Below, piece by piece: positions 22,233 to 30,642 of a stretch of 64,000 nt of DNA. The stretch's first letter is position 1. Each line of letters starts with the position of its first letter. The DNA is from Pelomonas sp. Root405 (lineage in GTDB: Bacteria; Pseudomonadota; Gammaproteobacteria; Burkholderiales; Burkholderiaceae_C): the NCBI RefSeq assembly GCF_001425165.1, contig NZ_LMDU01000001.1, positions 342,075 through 406,074 on the forward strand. The letters are read 5' to 3'. A program made the position numbers and the translations under genes. The notes beneath the pieces were generated by a model. The model was not told where the DNA came from, did not search any database, and saw only the letters and a program-made list of their open reading frames with translations.

Positions 22233-22895
22233 ATGCGAATCTGCCTGCTTGAGGACGATCTGGAACTGGGGCGCTCGCTGCAGGCCCTGCTGCAGAACGC
22301 CGACCATGAAGTGATGTGGCTGCGCCGCATCGCCGATGCCAAGCTGTGGGTGGGCGAGGGCGGTTTCGACGCCGTCGTCATGGACCTGGGCCTGCCCGAT
22401 GGCGACGGCATGGAACTGCTGCGCCAGCTGCGCCGCCAGCAGCGCAAGCTGCCGCTGATCGTCATCACCGCGCGCGACGCCATCGAGGACCGGCTGGACG
22501 GCCTGGACGGCGGCGCCGACGACTACCTCGTCAAGCCCTTTGCCGGCTCCGAGCTGCTGGCGCGGCTGCGCGCCGTGGTGCGGCGCAGCCAGGGCGACGC
22601 CGCCGAGGCCGGCGCCGCCGAATGGCAGCTGCGCGACCTGGTGCTGGACGAGCCGCGCATGGAAGTGCGCCGCGGGCTGGAGCGCGTGCCGCTGTCGCGC
22701 ACCGAATTCAGCATCCTGCTGACGCTGATCAAGCTGCCCGACCGCGTCGTCACCCGCCGCCAGCTGGAGAACCGTGCGCCCTGCCAGATGGACGGCCGCA
22801 GCCTCGACGTGCACATCTCCAACCTGCGCCGCAAGATCGGCGAGGGCTATATCCGCACGGTGCGCGGCGTGGGCTACCTGGTCGAACGCGAGTGA
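22233..22895 (+). CDS. OmpR/QseB-type response regulator
   Basis: The 220-residue regulator has an N-terminal receiver (Glu7-Asp8-Asp9, phospho-acceptor Asp51 in VVMDLGLP, Thr in VITARD, Lys in LVKPF) and a C-terminal winged-helix domain (about 128-217: LSRTEFSILLTLIKLPDRVV, LDVHISNLRRKIG, YIRTVRGVGYLV). It is followed after 10 bases by its kinase gene. The stimulus is not evident. A TTAA-type inverted repeat lies in its promoter region. Confidence 0.93.
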   Translation: MRICLLEDDLELGRSLQALLQNADHEVMWLRRIADAKLWVGEGGFDAVVMDLGLPDGDGMELLRQLRRQQRKLPLIVITARDAIEDRLDGLDGGADDYLVKPFAGSELLARLRAVVRRSQGDAAEAGAAEWQLRDLVLDEPRMEVRRGLERVPLSRTEFSILLTLIKLPDRVVTRRQLENRAPCQMDGRSLDVHISNLRRKIGEGYIRTVRGVGYLVERE

Positions 22896-22905
22896 GCGTG
22901 GTCCG

Positions 22906-24282
22906 GTGAGCCCTACACCGCAGCGCTCGCTGTTCAAGCGCAGCCTGGGCGCCATGTTCGCCGTGCTCTTCATGATCTGGCTGTTCCTGGTCGCACGCGA
23001 GCTCATCGACATCCGCGTGCTGCAGGTCAGGAACGGCCAGGCCGAGAACATGCTGTGGGCCGAGCTGGCGCTGGAGCGCTCGCGCGACACGCATGCCGAT
23101 GCGGCGCAGCTGCAGGAGGCGTTGCTGCACCTCGAGGGCATGCGCGCCCGCGAGTGGCGCCTCAAGGGCCACCGCACGCCGTTCCGCCTGCTGCAGGTGC
23201 TCAGGCGCGACGAGCTGCTGGCCGAGCTGACCCCTGACCTGACCGGCCGCGACCGCGTGCTGCCGCAGGAATCGGTGCCGGGCCAGGACGACCGCTGGCT
23301 CTACACCGAGGTGCGCGACGACGCGCGCGAACTGGTCGTGCGCCGCTGGCAGGAGCGGCCCGGCGACTGGCACTTCAGCCTCGCCGGCCTCAGCTACTAC
23401 GCCCGCCCGCTGCTGTACGGCCTGCCGCTGCTGGCGCTGCCGCTGTGGCTGCTGTTCCGCCTCGGCTTTGCGCCGCTGCAGCGCATCGGCGCGCAGATCT
23501 CCCAGCGCTCGGCGCAAGACCTGACACCGCTGCCCGCCACGCGCTACGTGGAGCTGGCGCCGCTCGTCAACGCCGTCAACTCGCTGATGGCGCGGCTGCA
23601 GCAGCGCCTGGACCGCGAGCACGAGTTCCTGGCCGACGCGGCGCATGAGCTTAAGACGCCGCTGGCCGTCATCCAGCTCAACTCCGAGGAGCTGGACCAG
23701 GCCGACCCGCGCGCCCGCGACGAGGCCCGCGAGCGTCTGCGGCTGGGCGTGCAGCGCGCCACGCACACGGTGCACCAGCTGCTGGCGCTGGCTCGCTCGG
23801 GCGCCGACGCGCTGGACCTCAGCAAGGGCCGCCATGACCTCGTCGACCTCGTGCGCGAACGTGTCGCGCTGGCCGTGGGCCTGGCCATGCAGCGGCGCAT
23901 CGAGCTGGAACTGGTGGCGCCCGAGGAGCTGCCCATGTGGCTGAACCGCGAGTCGCTGTGCAGCCTGGTCGACAACCTCGTCGACAACGCCATCAAGTAC
24001 TCGCCGCTGGGTGGCCATGTGACGGTGGCGCTGGTGGAAGCTGGCGACACGGTCGAGCTGACCGTCAGCGACGCCGGCCCGGGCATCCCGCCCGAGTTGC
24101 GCGAGCGCGTCTTCGAGCGCTTCGTGCGCCTGGCCGGCGACCAGCAATGCCATGGCAGCGGACTGGGCCTGACCATCGTCGAGCGGGCGGCGGCTCAGCA
24201 TGGGGCAACCGTCGAGCTACTGGACGGGTCCAGTGGCCGCGGGCTGACGGTGAAGGTCTGCTTTCCGCGGGCGGAGGCTTGA
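22906..24282 (+). CDS. Sensor histidine kinase partner of the OmpR-type regulator
   Basis: The 458-residue kinase starts with a GTG at 22906, ten bases after the regulator stop; the open frame before it only overlaps the regulator gene. There are membrane helices at about 14-32 and 168-186, bracketing a periplasmic region of about 135 residues without a known fold. A HAMP-like linker is followed by the HisKA domain with His247 in DAAHELKTPL, and HATPase_c with DNLVDNAIKYSP, DAGPGIP and GSGLGLTIVERAA. All catalytic boxes are intact. It forms a two-gene operon with the regulator. Confidence 0.92.
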   Translation: MSPTPQRSLFKRSLGAMFAVLFMIWLFLVARELIDIRVLQVRNGQAENMLWAELALERSRDTHADAAQLQEALLHLEGMRAREWRLKGHRTPFRLLQVLRRDELLAELTPDLTGRDRVLPQESVPGQDDRWLYTEVRDDARELVVRRWQERPGDWHFSLAGLSYYARPLLYGLPLLALPLWLLFRLGFAPLQRIGAQISQRSAQDLTPLPATRYVELAPLVNAVNSLMARLQQRLDREHEFLADAAHELKTPLAVIQLNSEELDQADPRARDEARERLRLGVQRATHTVHQLLALARSGADALDLSKGRHDLVDLVRERVALAVGLAMQRRIELELVAPEELPMWLNRESLCSLVDNLVDNAIKYSPLGGHVTVALVEAGDTVELTVSDAGPGIPPELRERVFERFVRLAGDQQCHGSGLGLTIVERAAAQHGATVELLDGSSGRGLTVKVCFPRAEA

Positions 24283-24331
24283 GGGGCGCTGCTACTGCCC
24301 GAGTCGACGAATATCGGCCTAAAGTGCCGCC

Positions 24332-27300
24332 ATGCTTCTCGATGCAGCATCTTTCATTGCCGCGGCGGCCAGCCTATCTACGCGGCAGATCAAGCAAGCC
24401 GGGCAACGATACACACCCGGCATCGAACCAGGTGCACCAAACCTCAAAATTGAGGCGCTGTCGACAGCCCTCGACAACGTAGCCTGCGGAGCCGCCGCAC
24501 GAGCCAGATTCGACGCCGTCCTTGAGCAGGTTTCAGAGGGATGGAAGCGCGCCAAGGGCAGTAGTCAGCGAGCTGCGGAGATCGAGTCGCTGACGGCGGC
24601 TGCGACCGCGTTCATCCCAGCAATGATGAGCAGGATGCTCTCGCAGGACGCCGCCGTGGGCGATGTTTGGTCGACGCACCTGTCCGGGATCGAATCGCTG
24701 CTGCTCGAGGATGGCGCCTACTGGCGGGCGGAGGAAGCAAAGCTAGGTCCCGATGATGGGAACTACTCGTCGGCGCGCAACACCATTCGCGGCCACATTC
24801 ATTCGATTGGCACGTGTTTGAGCGTGGTGCGCGACGAACTCGAATATGCAGGCAGTTCTTCGTTCAAGCTGCTGTACGGTCCGAACCTACTCATCGCTGG
24901 GGAATGGGGCACTGGCAAGACGCACCTGCTTTGCGATGTCACCACTGAGCGCCTTGGACGCGCGGCACCCACGATCCTGGTGCTCGCTAAGAACTTCCAG
25001 GGCGACGTGTTGGCAGATATTGGCGCCCAGATGGCCGCCGGCATCTCGTTGGAAGATCAGTTCGCATGTCTGAACGAGGTGGCGGGCAACGCGGTGGAAC
25101 GTGCGCTTGTGATCGTTGACGGCATCAATGAAGGGCGGCGCCGCGAGTGGCGTCAGGCTGTTGCCGCACTGCTGTCCCTCGCGGCCGCACACCCGAACGT
25201 TGGGTTGGTCGTGTCATGCCGCACGCCGTTTGAGCCGATTGCAATTGACAAGGCGGACCTTCCCAAGTTTTACCGGCTGCAGCACTACGGCTTCGATGAC
25301 CAGGAGTTCGACGCACAGGCGGCCTTCTTCCAGCACTACCAGTTGCCGCTTCCGGAGGTCCCGCTGCTGGATCGGGAGTTTTCTCGCCCGCTCACGCTGA
25401 AGCTCATCTGTCAGTCGCTTCAAGAGCTGACAGATTCAAAGAAGGCGAAAGGATTTGTCGGCATCGCTTCAGGGCAGCGTGGGATGACGTTCGTCCTGGA
25501 GGCGTTTGTCAAACGGATCGGCGCGTCGGTCGAGAGCGAGTTCGGGTTGAAGAGCAAGGGGTGCTGGCTCTTACTGAAGGGTGACGACCAGTTCGCCGAT
25601 CAACATACTGCCGGCTTCGCTCCGTGCATGGCCGCGAAACTGCGCGGCTATTTACTTCCATCCGAGGTAGATGGGATCGTGGCCGCGAGCTACCCCGCAA
25701 TGTCGCCCTCCAAGCGCCGGCAGCTCATTGAGGCCATGCGCACGAACGGCCTGATCGAAGAAGACGCCATTTGGTACTCAACCAAGACCGGCGCGCACAA
25801 GACAAGGGTGGTCTTCAGGCTCCCTTACCAGCGCTTCAGCGACCACCTCGTCGCGAGACATTTGCTGAGCGCCTACCTCGATGCGACGTCCGCCGACACC
25901 ATCAAGCAGAGCTTCGTCGGCGAGTCGCCTCTCGCCCGGATATTCCGCCTGTCCAAGGGGCACTACCGCCAGTACGAGGAGCCGGGCTGGGCTCAGGCGC
26001 TCATCACAGAGTTCGCTGAAAGGGCTGGCAAGCTGCCGCCCAAGGAGCGGGAGTTGTTTTTCGCGCTGCCAAAGTCGGCGCAGGACTGGACCGCCTATTT
26101 CGAACCGTTCATCGAGGGACTCTTCTGGCGCAATCCCAAGGCGTTCACAGAAGGAACCGTCGCGGCCCTGAACAAGTACCTGGGCGCCAGCGGAGGATCG
26201 TGGGACCGGGTCATGGATGCCTTGGCCGCCGTCTCAACAAAGCCTAACCACCCATTCCACGCCAGCCGCCTCTATAAGTACCTCGCACAGTATCCGATGG
26301 CCAACCGCGATCTGCGGTGGTCCGAGTACCTGCGGAGGAGGTATGCGTCACCGACCATCCACCGACTGCTGACTTGGGCGGAGAAGCTCGAAGGTGTGAG
26401 CATGAGCCGCGCCTCAGCTGCGGAGCTGGTCGCCCTCCTCTCCTTGGTCCTCACGACCGTTGTCCGCAGGGACCGCGACTTGGCCACCAAAGCGCTTGTC
26501 CTGATTGGCGAGCGCTTCCCGGACGTACTGTTCGCGCACGCCCTGGTGACTTTGGACTTCAACGATCCGTACGTCCCAGAACGCATGCTGGCAGCAGCGT
26601 ATGGCACGACACTGTCGCTGGTTGACTCGGACAAGGTGCCGGACTTCAAGGACCATCTCGGCGGCCTCGCCGAGATGCTCTACCGCCAGTTGTTCGCGCC
26701 CCGTGCGAGGCACAGCACGCACCACACCCTCATGCGGGACTACGCGCTGGGCATCATCGAAGTCGCCCAGCGCGCTGGCTGCGTAAAACTGCCGAAGACA
26801 TCAGCGCGTCATCTCAGCCGACCATTTCCCAGCATCCGGTCGTCCTTTGCGGGAAATGGCGTGCCCGATGCTGCGGTTACTGATGCCATCGGGCACGCCA
26901 TACAGATGGACTTCGGCAACTACACCATCGGCAGGCTCATCCCCAAGCGGGCGAACTACGATCACAAGCACCCCGAGTACCTCCGCGTGCGCTCAATGAT
27001 CGAACGGCGCATGTTCGACCTCGGCTACAGAGAAAAGCTGTTCAAGGACGTCGAGCACGACCTCGGCAGGAACTCTTGGAACTCAAAGGACGAGCACAAG
27101 GTTGATCGGTACGGAAAGAAGTATTCGTGGATCGCCTACTTCGAGATGTGGGGCGAGCGGGCTGCGCATCGGAAGCTGCCCGACTGGAAACAAGACCATC
27201 GGACTTCAGACTGCGGTATCGACCCGACATTCCCAAAGCGTCCGCCTGACTGGTCGCCGCCTATGCCTGACCTGTGTGGCGAACCAAGAGCCTCTACCGA

Positions 27301-28216
27301 GGAATGGGTGGCCAGTGGCTATACGCCAGACTGGCGATCGCTGCTTGTAGTCCCTGAGATCAACGGCTACCGGGGCGATTGGGTGCTCGTCGAGGGCTAT
27401 GTCAACGGCGATGACCACGCTCACGACCGGCAGATGTGGGGCTTCCTACGCGGAGTGTTTGCGAGCCGTAAGGATGTCGAGACTCTACGACGCAAGTACG
27501 ACGCAGTTGCCTTTCAGGGCAGTGATCGGATTCCGGAATCAGCGTCCGAGTACTACGTCTATGGCGCAGAGCCCGGCCATAGAAACAACTATGGGCACAA
27601 CCTGTATCAAGCCAATGGCAAGTACCGTCGGCAGACGCAACGCGCCTTCGACGAGTACGTGGAGGACCCCGGGCCGCCGCGGAGGCGCTCATTCACGATA
27701 AAGATCGCCTCAATGGCCAAGACTGGCATCGCGCTGGACAAGGAGATCCTGCACGAATTCGACATCCCGATTAGGCGCCTTGTGCCGGGCGTGCGGCTTG
27801 AGTTGCCATCTATGAAGTTTGCCTGGGAGTCCTATCACTCCGTGCACAACGCCTTCTCAAGCTTCAGCCTGCCCGCGCCAAGCCTCATACAGCGCCTCGG
27901 CCTCTTTTGCCGCGACCGCCAGATCGACTTTTTCGATGCGACCAGGCAGCCCGCCACGCTCTTCCGTGAGGCCGGCGATGGCTGGAAGGGAGACCGGCAC
28001 GCGCTGCTGTACGTCCGGGCAGATTTGCTACGGCGATACCTTGCCGAGACTCGCCAGGTGCTTGTTTGGTGCAACTGGGGGGAGCGTGACTGGCTGGAAA
28101 AGATGGACGGGGTCGATGTGCGTGCCAATCCGGCGAGGCAGCGTGTTTACCAGGATCAATCACATATCCACAGATCGTTCATGCAGTGGTCGGCCAAAGA
28201 CTCAACGATCGTGTAG
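24332..28216 (+). CDS. Large STAND-like P-loop NTPase, candidate antiphage/conflict protein
   Basis: This is a 1294-residue soluble protein. An in-frame TAA 12 bases before the ATG rules out a longer N-terminus. Residues 1-180 are mainly helical with no nuclease motif that I recognise. The NTPase core has Walker A GEWGTGKT (190-197), Walker B ALVIVDGINEG (258-268), and an Arg near 297 (VSCRTP). FSRPLTLKLICQSL (350-363) matches the proline-containing motif after the ATPase core of STAND proteins. A long helical region (about 470-850) follows, then a C-terminal part with DFGNYTIGRLI, DRYGKKYSWIAYFEMWG (about 924-940) and WRSLLVVPEINGY. This layout resembles AVAST (Avs)-type defence NTPases, where the C-terminus senses phage proteins. 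The gene is single, with lower G+C and more A/T-ending codons than its neighbours, suggesting transfer. The function is inferred, not shown. Confidence 0.7.
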   Translation: MLLDAASFIAAAASLSTRQIKQAGQRYTPGIEPGAPNLKIEALSTALDNVACGAAARARFDAVLEQVSEGWKRAKGSSQRAAEIESLTAAATAFIPAMMSRMLSQDAAVGDVWSTHLSGIESLLLEDGAYWRAEEAKLGPDDGNYSSARNTIRGHIHSIGTCLSVVRDELEYAGSSSFKLLYGPNLLIAGEWGTGKTHLLCDVTTERLGRAAPTILVLAKNFQGDVLADIGAQMAAGISLEDQFACLNEVAGNAVERALVIVDGINEGRRREWRQAVAALLSLAAAHPNVGLVVSCRTPFEPIAIDKADLPKFYRLQHYGFDDQEFDAQAAFFQHYQLPLPEVPLLDREFSRPLTLKLICQSLQELTDSKKAKGFVGIASGQRGMTFVLEAFVKRIGASVESEFGLKSKGCWLLLKGDDQFADQHTAGFAPCMAAKLRGYLLPSEVDGIVAASYPAMSPSKRRQLIEAMRTNGLIEEDAIWYSTKTGAHKTRVVFRLPYQRFSDHLVARHLLSAYLDATSADTIKQSFVGESPLARIFRLSKGHYRQYEEPGWAQALITEFAERAGKLPPKERELFFALPKSAQDWTAYFEPFIEGLFWRNPKAFTEGTVAALNKYLGASGGSWDRVMDALAAVSTKPNHPFHASRLYKYLAQYPMANRDLRWSEYLRRRYASPTIHRLLTWAEKLEGVSMSRASAAELVALLSLVLTTVVRRDRDLATKALVLIGERFPDVLFAHALVTLDFNDPYVPERMLAAAYGTTLSLVDSDKVPDFKDHLGGLAEMLYRQLFAPRARHSTHHTLMRDYALGIIEVAQRAGCVKLPKTSARHLSRPFPSIRSSFAGNGVPDAAVTDAIGHAIQMDFGNYTIGRLIPKRANYDHKHPEYLRVRSMIERRMFDLGYREKLFKDVEHDLGRNSWNSKDEHKVDRYGKKYSWIAYFEMWGERAAHRKLPDWKQDHRTSDCGIDPTFPKRPPDWSPPMPDLCGEPRASTEEWVASGYTPDWRSLLVVPEINGYRGDWVLVEGYVNGDDHAHDRQMWGFLRGVFASRKDVETLRRKYDAVAFQGSDRIPESASEYYVYGAEPGHRNNYGHNLYQANGKYRRQTQRAFDEYVEDPGPPRRRSFTIKIASMAKTGIALDKEILHEFDIPIRRLVPGVRLELPSMKFAWESYHSVHNAFSSFSLPAPSLIQRLGLFCRDRQIDFFDATRQPATLFREAGDGWKGDRHALLYVRADLLRRYLAETRQVLVWCNWGERDWLEKMDGVDVRANPARQRVYQDQSHIHRSFMQWSAKDSTIV

Positions 28217-28310
28217 CAACGGGGCCCATGGATGCGTCCGATATCCGGCCGCTCGATGAGCGAAAAAGGGACCGGCAGCGGTGGGTGGCTGCTTCACCCG
28301 TAACCGCGGT

Positions 28311-28541
28311 CAGCGGGTGGATCAGGATGCGGTCCACGTCGTCGGCGTGCATCTGGAAGTGGGAGGCGCCGCCCGGCTGCAGCCGCGTGACGGCCCCGGG
28401 TTCGCTGACGCCCCAGTCGCGCGCAATGTCGGCCAGCCTGCGGCTAGCCAGGTCGGGGGGCGCCTCGCTCCACGTCAGGCGGATGGGCGTGAGGCCATCG
28501 ACCAAGTCCTCGCGCCGCACCGTGGAGCCGGCCGGGTCGAG
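28311..28541 (-). pseudogene. Fragment of a second D-aminoacylase gene
   Basis: About 77 codons on the minus strand read AGSTVRREDLVDGLTPIRL, TWSEAPPDLASRRLADIARD and LQPGGASHFQMHADDVDRIL. They match residues of about 275-350 of the intact D-aminoacylase gene downstream (its copy lies at roughly 29588-29812). The two stretches look about 85% alike by eye. Similarity ends abruptly on both sides: no start, no metal-site motifs, and unrelated sequence beyond. It is a remnant of a paralogue or of a duplication, and it fills most of the otherwise gene-free 361 bases between the STAND-like gene and the DUF1993 gene. Confidence 0.8.
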
Positions 28542-28577
28542 GTCGTGCGGTAGGTCGGGGCGAACGCAGTTGCCTGC

Positions 28578-29087
28578 TCAGTACGCGCCCATGTAGTCCT
28601 TCTTGCCGATCTGGATGCCGTTGTGGCGCAGGATGGCGTAGACGGTGGTGATGTGGAAGAAAAACTGCGGCAGTCCGTAGTGGGCCAGGTAAGCGCGGCC
28701 GCTGAACTTCCTCTCCTTGGGCGTGCCAGGGCGCAAGACGATCTCGCGCTCTTCGGCGGCTTCGAACTGTGCGGGCTGCAGGCTGTCCAGGAACAGCAGG
28801 CTTTCCTCCAGCATGGCGGTCAGGTCGGCGAAGGTCTTCTCCTGTCCGTCATTGGCGGGAACGGCCACCCCCGCAAGACGGGCGCTGACGCCACGCGCAA
28901 AGTCAGCCGCGATCTGCACCTGCTTTAGCAAGGGAAACATGTCGGGGAAGAGCCGCGCCTGCAAGTAGGCCGCAGGCTCGATGGCGTGAGCGGTGGCATG
29001 GGTGTCAGCCTTTGCCAGCACGGCCTTCATGGCAGTCAGCATCTGCTTGAAGACGGGAACCGATTGCGTGTACATGGTCGAGGTCAT
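28578..29087 (-). CDS. DUF1993 family protein
   Basis: The 169-residue protein has the usual length for the family. The start at 29087 (MTSTMYTQSVPVFKQML) has AGGA upstream; the open frame continues to 29237, but that part lacks similarity to the family. Typical features: MYTQSVPVFKQML at the N-terminus, LFPDMFPLLKQVQIAADFARG, and a late LPQFFFHITTVYAILRHNG then IGKKDYMG. This is a DinB-like helical-bundle fold of unknown function. The gene lies between the D-aminoacylase fragment and the intact D-aminoacylase gene, all on the same strand. Confidence 0.85.
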   Translation of the reverse strand: MTSTMYTQSVPVFKQMLTAMKAVLAKADTHATAHAIEPAAYLQARLFPDMFPLLKQVQIAADFARGVSARLAGVAVPANDGQEKTFADLTAMLEESLLFLDSLQPAQFEAAEEREIVLRPGTPKERKFSGRAYLAHYGLPQFFFHITTVYAILRHNGIQIGKKDYMGAY

Positions 29088-29217
29088 GTCTGTTGTCCTG
29101 TTAGGGCGTTGAACTTGGCGCGGATGAGGCGGCCGTGAGCAGCCAGTCCGCGCAGCTTGAATCGTGGAGAAGGGCCACGTTCGCAAGCGCGCATCATCGC
29201 CGCCCGTTGCGGGGGCG

Positions 29218-30642
29218 CTATTGGGCCGACTTGGCAAGCACCCGCCCGGCGCGCGCGAGTGGCGTGTGGCCGTCCAGTGCCAGTTCGCCGTTCACCCACA
29301 CGGCCGCGATGCCGGCGGCCGGCGTCGTCGGTTCGCCGTAGTCGGCTCGGTCTGCCAGTCGCTCGGCGTCGAACAAGACCAGGTCCGCCGCCGCCCCTTC
29401 GCGCAGCACGCCGCGGTCTAGCAGTCCGAAGCGCTGCGCCGTCAGCCCCGTCATCTTGTGCACCGCCTGCGCCAGCGTCAGCAGGCCGCGCTCGCGGCCG
29501 TAGTGCGCCCAGACGCGCGGGAACGCGCCCCACAGGCGCGGGTGGGGGAAGCGGTCGTGCGGCAGGCCGTCGGAGCCGATCATGGCCAGCGGGTGGGTGA
29601 GGATGCGGTCGACATCGTCGGCGTGCATCTGGAAATAGCAGGCGCCGCCCGGCTGCAGCCGCGCCACGGCCTCGGGTTCGCTACACGCCCAGTCGAGCGC
29701 AATATCGGCCAGCCAGCGGCCGGCCAGTTCGGGGTGGGCCTCGCTCCACGTCAGGCGGATGGGCGTGAGGCCATCGGCCAGGTCCTCGCGCAGCACCGTG
29801 GAGCCGGCGACGTAGGGGTAGACGTCCAGCCCCAGCGACTGGCGTTCGGCCAGCCGCTCGATCAGCGCCAGCGTCTGCAGGCTGCGGCCCCATTGCGCGC
29901 GGCCGGCGCATTTGTGGTGGGAGATGACCAGGGGCAGGCCGGCGGCGTGCGCGCAGTCGGCGGCCTCGGTGATGGCGTCGAGCACATCGGCCATCTCGTT
30001 GCGCAGGTGCACGGCATACACGCCGCCGTGGCGGGCGGCGATGCGGGCCAGAGCCAGCAGCTCCGTGGCGTCGGCCGCGGCGGCGGGGGCGTAGAAGGTG
30101 CCCGAAGACAGGCCGGCTGCGCCCTGCTCCATGGCCTCGTCGAGCAGGGCGCACATGGCGTCGCGCTCGGCATCGGTCGCCGGGCGGTTGAGGTCGCGCA
30201 TGCAGCGCAGCCGCAGCGCCGTGTGGCCGACCAGGCCGACCGCATTGACGGCCGGCCGCGCGGCGTCAGCGGCCGCGCGCCAGTCGGCAAACGACGCATG
30301 CCGGAACTGCTCGCGCGCGAGCAGGTTCATCGGCGGCGGCGGGTCGGCCGTTACCAGCGGCGCCAGCGAGATGCCGCAGTTGCCGGTGACGACGGTGGTC
30401 ACGCCCTGCGTCAGCTTCGGCAGCATGCCGGGCGACGTGATCAGCGCCGCGTCGTCGTGACTGTGGGCGTCGATGAAGCCGGGCGCCAGCACGAGGCCGC
30501 TGCAGTCGCGCCGCGGCACGGCCGGGTCAACCTGCAGTGCCGTGCCGAGGGCCGCGATGCGCTCGCCGGCTATCAGCAGATCACCGACCCAACCCGGCGC
30601 GCCACTGCCATCGACGATCAGCGCGCCCTGCAGCAACAGCAT
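29218..30642 (-). CDS. N-acyl-D-amino-acid deacylase (D-aminoacylase)
   Basis: This is a 474-residue amidohydrolase that removes acyl groups from N-acyl-D-amino acids. The metal-site motif is HSHDD (His60, His62, Asp63; usual form HxHDD), with the bridging Cys89 in TGNCG and later His residues in HLRNE and ISHHKCAG. The C-terminus shows GLLDRGVLREGAAADLVLFD, the typical end of the family barrel. It is translationally coupled to the upstream deaminase gene by a one-base stop/start overlap, so N-acyl-D-amino acids can be deacylated and then deaminated by the same operon. A broken copy of its middle part lies at 28311-28541. Confidence 0.92.
   Translation of the reverse strand: MLLLQGALIVDGSGAPGWVGDLLIAGERIAALGTALQVDPAVPRRDCSGLVLAPGFIDAHSHDDAALITSPGMLPKLTQGVTTVVTGNCGISLAPLVTADPPPPMNLLAREQFRHASFADWRAAADAARPAVNAVGLVGHTALRLRCMRDLNRPATDAERDAMCALLDEAMEQGAAGLSSGTFYAPAAAADATELLALARIAARHGGVYAVHLRNEMADVLDAITEAADCAHAAGLPLVISHHKCAGRAQWGRSLQTLALIERLAERQSLGLDVYPYVAGSTVLREDLADGLTPIRLTWSEAHPELAGRWLADIALDWACSEPEAVARLQPGGACYFQMHADDVDRILTHPLAMIGSDGLPHDRFPHPRLWGAFPRVWAHYGRERGLLTLAQAVHKMTGLTAQRFGLLDRGVLREGAAADLVLFDAERLADRADYGEPTTPAAGIAAVWVNGELALDGHTPLARAGRVLAKSAQ

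What the first reader, a model, noticed from the sequence alone, without database searches (positions are those of the whole stretch)
24332..28216. Solitary 1294-residue STAND-like NTPase, candidate new antiphage or conflict gene
Seen: Walker A GEWGTGKT, Walker B ALVIVDGINEG, the post-core FSRPLTLKLICQSL motif, a long helical middle and a large C-terminus with DRYGKKYSWIAYFEMWG. It has no partner gene, no nuclease motif I can see in residues 1-180, and visibly lower G+C than both flanks. Known: Avs/NACHT-type STAND proteins sense phage proteins through C-terminal repeats and fire an N-terminal effector. Inference: this is a one-gene defence protein whose N-terminal 180 residues may be an effector not yet described.
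Basis: partly seen in the sequence, partly recalled or inferred. Interest (0 to 1): 0.82.

Follow-up and report, generated by a model that had tools for sequence, protein, structure and literature searches.

The report
Phage-sensor ATPase lacking its effector
This gene encodes a relative of the bacterial antiphage immune receptor Avs2 that, like the rest of a large family found in bacteria and archaea, lacks the usual killing domain at its front end, so if it defends cells it must do so in a way not yet worked out.

Summary
The ORF and motifs are real (24332-28216, 1294 aa). It is a STAND ATPase of the Avs2 kind: PADLOC Avs2 E=1.4e-160; family profile against solved EcAvs2 (9o4e) E=4e-149. Profile position 12 aligns to EcAvs2 residue 170, so the N-terminal effector region is absent. 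Among the nearest relatives fetched, 0 of 240 carry the nuclease motif, against 119 of 120 in a nuclease-bearing sister family. The sampled effector-less rows form one clade (91/97) across five bacterial phyla and haloarchaea; dN/dS is about 0.12. No recurring neighbour (35 loci), no second Avs2-like gene in 23 of 24 carrier genomes, no free-standing Avs2-type nuclease found. The gene is sporadic and sits between genes that abut in a relative; another relative holds a different defence candidate there. Methylase genes lie within 10 kb in 8 of 24 genomes, 0.45 expected. Most likely an effector-less, possibly self-sufficient phage sensor; antiphage role and output are untested. No structure prediction was obtained. 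New variant of a known kind.

The parts
24332..28216 (+). effector-less Avs2-like STAND ATPase gene, 1294 aa
24332..24841 (+). residues 1-170: region that in EcAvs2 follows the effector; begins 23 residues before the AGQRYTPGIEPGAPN motif; no effector domain
   Evidence: relatively variable (mean entropy 1.11 for 26-170, family mean 0.85)
24899..24922 (+). Walker A GEWGTGKT (190-197); GxWGTGK is a signature of the effector-less family
   Evidence: 235 of 240 against 0 of 120 in the sister family
25103..25135 (+). Walker B region ALVIVDGINEG (258-268)
25379..25420 (+). post-core motif FSRPLTLKLICQSL (350-363)
25562..25582 (+). family-specific CW..LKG element (411-417)
26012..28213 (+). residues 561-1294: C-terminal half homologous to the EcAvs2 C-terminal half, presumed sensor; lacks the EcAvs2 stretch 990-1094
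   Evidence: profile of residues 600-1294
27104..27154 (+). DRYGKKYSWIAYFEMWG (925-941), conserved with Avs2
27623..27781 (+). hypervariable stretch, residues 1098-1150
28308..28543 (-). remnant of a D-aminoacylase gene, 86-89% identical to the intact gene downstream
28578..29237 (-). DUF1993 gene, low GC3, absent from this place in three relatives; part of the insert
22233..24282 (+). response regulator and histidine kinase genes, left flank, conserved in relatives
29218..30642 (-). intact D-aminoacylase gene (name by eye), right flank, conserved in relatives

Best explanation
A horizontally acquired, single-gene antiphage receptor of the Avs2 kind whose lineage has no N-terminal effector. 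The conserved C-terminal half binds a conserved phage protein, ATP-dependent assembly through the intact NTPase core follows, and the assembled protein itself is the working device, most likely by capturing or blocking the phage protein that it senses. Shown by computation: Avs2 kinship, absence of the effector in the relatives sampled, purifying selection, sporadic presence as a solitary gene, linkage to DNA-methylase genes. Inferred: antiphage role, phage ligand, assembly, and above all the output step, which is the weakest link.
For: Avs2 homology of both halves. Effector absent: 25 of 26 loci with a whole frame start 19-51 residues before the motif arginine, 213 of the 215 motif-bearing among 240 proteins start at most 60 residues before the motif, nuclease motif 0 of 240 and 0 of 26 loci against 119 of 120 sisters. 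dN/dS 0.11-0.12. No family adjacent to the gene in more than 2 of 35 loci; one Avs2-like gene only in 23 of 24 carrier genomes and in the own genome. Spread over five bacterial phyla and haloarchaea, which makes a fixed host partner less likely. N6-methylase matches within 10 kb in 8 of 24 genomes, 0.45 expected. Same insertion site carries a PADLOC candidate (PDC-S06) in one relative. NTPase core and C-terminal half conserved.
Against: No experiment. Capture alone would not obviously need the strictly conserved ATP site. The helical region 1-170 is variable but under selection (dN/dS 0.15-0.16) and could hide a function. No structure model was obtained. EcAvs2 990-1094 is missing here, so the ligand need not be the Avs2 ligand. 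Some copies are broken: L011, L013, L014, L019. The window's own neighbourhood is not an obvious defence island.
Confidence: 0.45

Rival explanations
1. Sensor with an effector in trans: on ligand binding the ATPase assembles and switches on a host-encoded or unlinked enzyme that docks on region 1-170, where relatives carry their fused effector.
For: The ATP site and post-core motif are kept, as expected of a switch with an output; region 1-170 is among the more variable parts, as a docking surface may be. Another Avs2-like gene, L062, starts just before the motif too and has close neighbours (99 aa overlapping upstream, 212 aa 6 bases downstream).
Against: No recurring neighbour in 35 loci; Avs2-type nuclease profile found in 1 of 25 genomes only, inside a second Avs2-like gene. 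The search for the sister family's nuclease type (0 of 25) had no positive control and shows nothing. Partners of another kind were not searched for.
Confidence: 0.28
2. Cryptic effector: residues 1-170, or another part of the protein, have an enzymatic or pore activity of their own that sequence methods do not see.
For: Region 1-170 is under selection (dN/dS 0.15-0.16) and has no Pfam or PHROG match for its first 174 residues.
Against: The region aligns with the post-effector region of EcAvs2. Clade-specific invariant residues lie largely in 192-428 and the C-terminal half, only N37 in 1-170. The first 20 residues are not strongly hydrophobic or amphipathic in 6 sequences looked at.
Confidence: 0.15
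3. Not a defence protein: a STAND regulator or stress sensor linked to the neighbouring two-component system.
For: It lies 49 bases downstream of a histidine kinase gene.
Against: No DNA-binding domain in Pfam search; the kinase neighbour recurs at no other locus in adjacent position; sporadic; methylase linkage.
Confidence: 0.08
4. Decaying or selfish remnant of a full-length Avs2 gene without present function.
For: Effector absent; some copies broken.
Against: Open frame of 1294 codons, dN/dS about 0.12, hundreds of relatives of the same length.
Confidence: 0.04

Closest known systems
Avs2 / AVAST type 2 (EcAvs2, PDB 9o4e; V. parahaemolyticus WP_077284313, L036)
   Same: Homologous NTPase core, middle and C-terminal half; GKKY.WIAY.E and RYTP motifs
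   Different: No N-terminal effector region (EcAvs2 1-169) and no counterpart of EcAvs2 990-1094; 442 bits in NCBI's Avs2 model, cut-off 1000; PADLOC profile matched to position 955 of 1504 only in the best stretch
Nuclease-bearing sister family (L038, L096; P0241-P0360, about 1344 aa)
   Same: Groups with the effector-less clade at 100/98; L038 shares the short spacing in the C-terminal half
   Different: 119 of 120 carry a nuclease-like motif before the core and 0 of 120 have GxWGTGK
bNACHT clade 14 (bNACHT02, bNACHT12)
   Same: STAND antiphage proteins that, per a passage of PMC12169576, lack readily discernible effector domains
   Different: NACHT model scores only 13.6 bits here, cut-off 26.7; NACHT search of the own genome did not list this gene
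Avs4 (PDB 8dgf)
   Same: Indirect: the N-terminal nuclease profile of relatives matches Avs4 residues 5-98, E=5e-4; that domain is missing here
   Different: No match of the family profiles to Avs4 at the limits used

Membership tests
Avs2 (AVAST type 2) | Homologous STAND NTPase core and middle region | tested here: met
   9o4e 170-959, E=4e-149; PDLC02164 E=1.4e-160
Avs2 (AVAST type 2) | N-terminal effector domain before the RYTP motif | tested here: not met
   Only 25 residues before the motif arginine; EcAvs2 1-169 unmatched; nuclease motif 0 of 240 relatives. One canonical-motif relative, L062, also lacks it
Avs2 (AVAST type 2) | Score above NCBI's curated cut-off for the Avs2 equivalog | tested here: not met
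   441.9 bits, cut-off 1000
Avs2 (AVAST type 2) | Avs2-type C-terminal half | tested here: inconclusive
   Three aligned pieces, total E=1e-42, the third weak on its own; 990-1094 absent
Avs2 (AVAST type 2) | Recognition of a phage packaging protein and antiphage protection | not testable with these tools
   Needs experiments; the property is quoted for Avs1-4 from a passage of PMC12931631
bNACHT clade 14 | NACHT module above the Pfam cut-off | tested here: not met
   13.6 bits, cut-off 26.7
bNACHT clade 14 | C-terminal SNaCT domain | not tested
   No model of it was compared by name
Avs5 | N-terminal Sir2-like effector domain (per PMC12931631 passage) | tested here: not met
   No Sir2 match in Pfam
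Housekeeping STAND protein | Present in most close relatives | tested here: not met
   1 of 60 genomes, the own one

The most novel reading that the evidence does not exclude
A whole class of prokaryotic NLR-type receptors, shared by bacteria and archaea, that defends as a single protein with neither a fused nor a partner effector: the ligand-triggered ATPase assembly is itself the antiviral device.
Probability: 0.42. Interest if true: 0.82.

Novelty: new variant of a known kind. Interest (0 to 1): 0.62.

Why it matters
The working rule for Avs and bacterial NLR-like proteins is sensor, ATPase switch, N-terminal effector. A family with hundreds of members that keeps switch and C-terminal half under selection, has no effector, and occurs as a single gene in several phyla and in haloarchaea departs from that rule. 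It gives a clean system to ask whether the ATPase assembly alone can stop a phage, or which host factor it uses. The precedent of effector-less bNACHT clade 14 has no known mechanism in the passages seen. Annotation is also affected: PADLOC's models score these genes as Avs2, NCBI's Avs2 model does not.

Tried and rejected
Rejected or weakened: (1) a new effector in residues 1-180. (2) A start-codon error hiding an effector: the frame opens only 3 codons upstream and relatives start at about the same place. (3) A linked partner: ORFs of 35 loci clustered, selected neighbours annotated, adjacent ORFs listed with a hydropathy score; no family is adjacent in more than 2 of 35 loci. (4) A full-length Avs2-like helper in the same genome; Avs families unlike Avs2 were not searched for as such. 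(5) A free-standing nuclease of the Avs2 type: one search found it in 1 of 25 genomes, inside the second Avs2-like gene of G812. For the sister family's nuclease type one search gave 0 of 25, but the tool warns that an empty answer without a positive control shows nothing. (6) NACHT-like hits in the own genome: 7; the 3 read (L054, L055, L058) look, by eye, like two transcription regulators and a helicase; 4 were not read. (7) Phage carriage: three scans of viral contigs gave one and the same contig; phage records gave one match over a 190-residue stretch. (8) A report in print of effector-less Avs: none seen in searches of an open-licence library that does not hold the 2022 Avs paper, so this is weak.

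Led nowhere: structure prediction (both jobs interrupted), so no fold search was made. The alignment held one wrongly placed row (L095) and was remade without it as A8. One search crashed on a file name and was rerun.

Caveats and dropped rows. Genes at loci were called by longest ORF, so starts may be too long and short flanking ORFs spurious. L025 has 121 residues before the motif arginine; its near relative P0162 starts 15 residues before the motif, so I take L025's start as over-long. In the tree the 48 rows were picked by me; L062 was labelled 'full' for its canonical motif although it starts 23 residues before it; counted as effector-less it would need a further change. L040, also 'full', has a truncated start. 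25 of 240 proteins failed the motif pattern: 22 begin within or after it, 3 (P0025, P0153, P0233) have variant forms. Searches list the best 120 of 400, 679 and 963 hits, so the sets of 240 and 120 are the nearest relatives only. Searches used the genomes of 24 of the 33 loci; I left out nine with short contigs or incomplete genes, after neighbours had been seen; one of the nine, L018, also lies near a type I restriction gene.
Full report
OBSERVATION. The ORF 24332-28216 (+) encodes 1294 residues; the open frame is only 3 codons longer upstream. GC3 is 0.751, against 0.88-0.93 in 8 of 9 other genes measured, the exception being the adjoining DUF1993 gene at 0.789. Nothing in Pfam passes its cut-off.

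WHAT IT IS. PADLOC's Avs2 profile PDLC02164 matches at E=1.4e-160, best stretch residues 17-836 to profile positions 181-955 of 1504. NCBI's Avs2 equivalog model gives 442 bits, cut-off 1000. By single sequence the only convincing solved relative is 9o4e, AVAST type 2 Avs2, E=1.5e-56. A 30-row profile of residues 1-845 aligns positions 12-846 to 9o4e residues 170-959, E=4e-149; a 27-row profile of residues 600-1294 aligns in pieces to 9o4e 744-989, 1095-1326 and, weakly, 1352-1446, E=1e-42. So both halves are Avs2-like, EcAvs2 1-169 has no counterpart, and neither has 990-1094.

THE EFFECTOR IS MISSING IN THE FAMILY. In 7 such sequences D47, G49, E51, Q65 and K67 are invariant and their profile matches the N-terminus of Avs4 (8dgf) at E=5e-4; that this is the PD-(D/E)xK nuclease pattern is recalled, not tested. 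The N-terminus of the V. parahaemolyticus and E. coli Avs2 is of another kind. In our family the protein starts just before the motif: 25 of 26 loci with a whole frame have 19-51 residues before the arginine; the 26th, L025, has 121, while its near relative P0162 starts 15 before the motif. Of 240 database relatives 215 match the motif pattern, 213 of these start at most 60 residues before it and none more than 130. Control: 119 of 120 sister proteins have the nuclease-like motif in their first 220 residues with Walker A at a median offset of 329; in our family 0 of 240, Walker A at 191; 0 of the 26 loci. The relatives listed are 62-90% identical over 92-100% of the query; those come from a profile of nine distant members from Bacteroidia, Acidobacteria, Actinobacteria, Pseudomonadota and haloarchaea.

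ONE CLADE, WITH A CAVEAT. On residues 170-830 of 48 chosen sequences the 34 effector-less rows form one side of a branch (91/97; one change in 93% of bootstrap trees), and the nuclease-bearing L038 and L096, on long branches, join them at 100/98. L062, labelled full for its canonical motif, also starts just before that motif, so absence of the effector seems to have arisen at least twice. Signatures of the family: GxWGTGK (235 of 240; 0 of 120 sisters) and, among 34 against 14 rows, N37, Q329, R352, Q382, C411-W412 and K416-G417. Whether the effector was lost or was never there cannot be told without a root.

ALIVE. dN/dS is 0.122, 0.115 and 0.108 against L021, L013 (first 769 codons) and L030; residues 1-170 alone give 0.163, 0.151 and 0.145. 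Against this, some copies are broken: L011 and L014 are split, L013 lacks residues 770-1083 and changes frame, L019 has an internal stop.

ALONE. Clustering the ORFs around 35 loci (33 genome contigs, one viral contig, the window) finds no family adjacent to the gene in more than 2 loci. Upstream neighbours that could be named differ: DUF3987, YgjP-like metallopeptidase, SF1-type helicase, class II tRNA synthetase, N6-methylase, phage integrase, transposase-like integrase core, a PDC-M21B candidate; others had no match. Of 24 carrier genomes (of 33 loci) 23 have only this copy and one, G812, a second Avs2-like gene; the own genome has one. A profile of the Avs2-type nuclease matches 1 of 25 genomes, inside that second gene of G812. 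A two-row profile of the sister family's N-terminus matches 0 of 25, without positive control.

MOBILE, AND NEAR DEFENCE GENES. The own genome is the only one of 60 with the gene. In the order 8 of 399 genomes match: the own copy, five with Avs2-like or STAND-like genes at low identity, and two marginal short matches, one of them 27 residues at 67%. In the phylum 24 of 398 match; of eight loci whose N-terminus could be read (L090-L097), L090 (1294 aa) is effector-less and seven have an N-terminal domain. In three same-genus relatives with an 87%-identical kinase the gene is absent. In G014 the kinase stop codon abuts the D-aminoacylase gene. In G015 the gap of about 4.3 kb holds a glutathione-S-transferase-like gene, a GreA/B-like gene and an 805-aa AAA_13 gene that PADLOC scores as its candidate PDC-S06 with 889 bits. 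In G007 a gap of about 3.3 kb holds a fragment with an integrase N-terminal domain and an ASCH-domain gene. In the window the insert holds the STAND gene, a 236-base D-aminoacylase remnant and the DUF1993 gene. N6-methylase matches lie within 10 kb of the gene in 8 of 24 genomes, 0.45 expected, Poisson P 3e-8, a rough figure.

HOW IT MIGHT WORK. Shown: ATP site, post-core motif and most of the C-terminal half are conserved; in 114 family members the variable parts are 1098-1150 (entropy 1.89), the last 34 residues (1.25), the first 25 (1.28) and 26-170 (1.11), against a mean of 0.85. A conserved C-terminal half suggests a conserved ligand. From print: Avs1-4 recognise terminase, portal or another phage protein and kill through nucleases (passage of PMC12931631). 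Inferred: this protein binds a conserved phage protein and assembles. The output is open. Because the gene occurs alone in several phyla and in haloarchaea, and no partner was found, I favour an output that needs none, the assembly capturing or blocking its ligand; an effector in trans is the main rival. Effector-less defence has a precedent in bNACHT clade 14 (passage of PMC12169576), a different STAND family.

NOVELTY. Avs2 kinship is visible to annotation libraries. The absence of the effector in this family was not found described in the searches made (open-licence papers only). Papers were seen as search listings, except passages of PMC12931631, PMC12169576 and PMC10907252. I file it as a new variant of a known kind and not as a member of Avs2, because two defining features (effector domain, NCBI cut-off) were tested and not met. 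The confidence in the specific output mechanism is lower than in the class: I would put the class (effector-less Avs2-like receptor with a defence role) at about 0.8.

Noticed in passing
window 24283-29217; L087, L088, L089: The place between the histidine kinase and D-aminoacylase genes is variable in the genus: empty in G014, different cargo in G015 (with a PDC-S06 candidate), G007 (integrase fragment, ASCH gene) and the window.
   Followed up: partly
window 24283-24290 and 29212-29219: The 8-base word GGGGCGCT occurs at both borders of the insert, just after the kinase stop and at the D-aminoacylase end; possible target duplication, but an 8-base match in G+C-rich DNA may be chance.
   Followed up: no
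   Followed up: partly
L038, L096; P0241-P0360: A widespread sister family of about 1344 aa with a nuclease-like N-terminus (GVEF...GWQCKW), annotated in the sources seen as hypothetical protein or ATPase.
   Followed up: partly
L002 (IMG/VR contig, 42 kb): The only viral-collection contig with the family; PHROG matches upstream are integrase, ParB-like and primase-like genes; no structural gene was seen in the 8 proteins tested.
   Followed up: partly
L008 and L009, 43 bases downstream of the gene: A shared 71-aa ORF ending in GYARVSTT, which looks by eye like the start of a serine recombinase.
   Followed up: no
L041 (Paraburkholderia largidicola plasmid, NZ_AP023177): Only the C-terminal part of a family member (residues 910-1294, 61%) remains, just downstream of IS66 transposase genes.
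   Followed up: no
   Followed up: no
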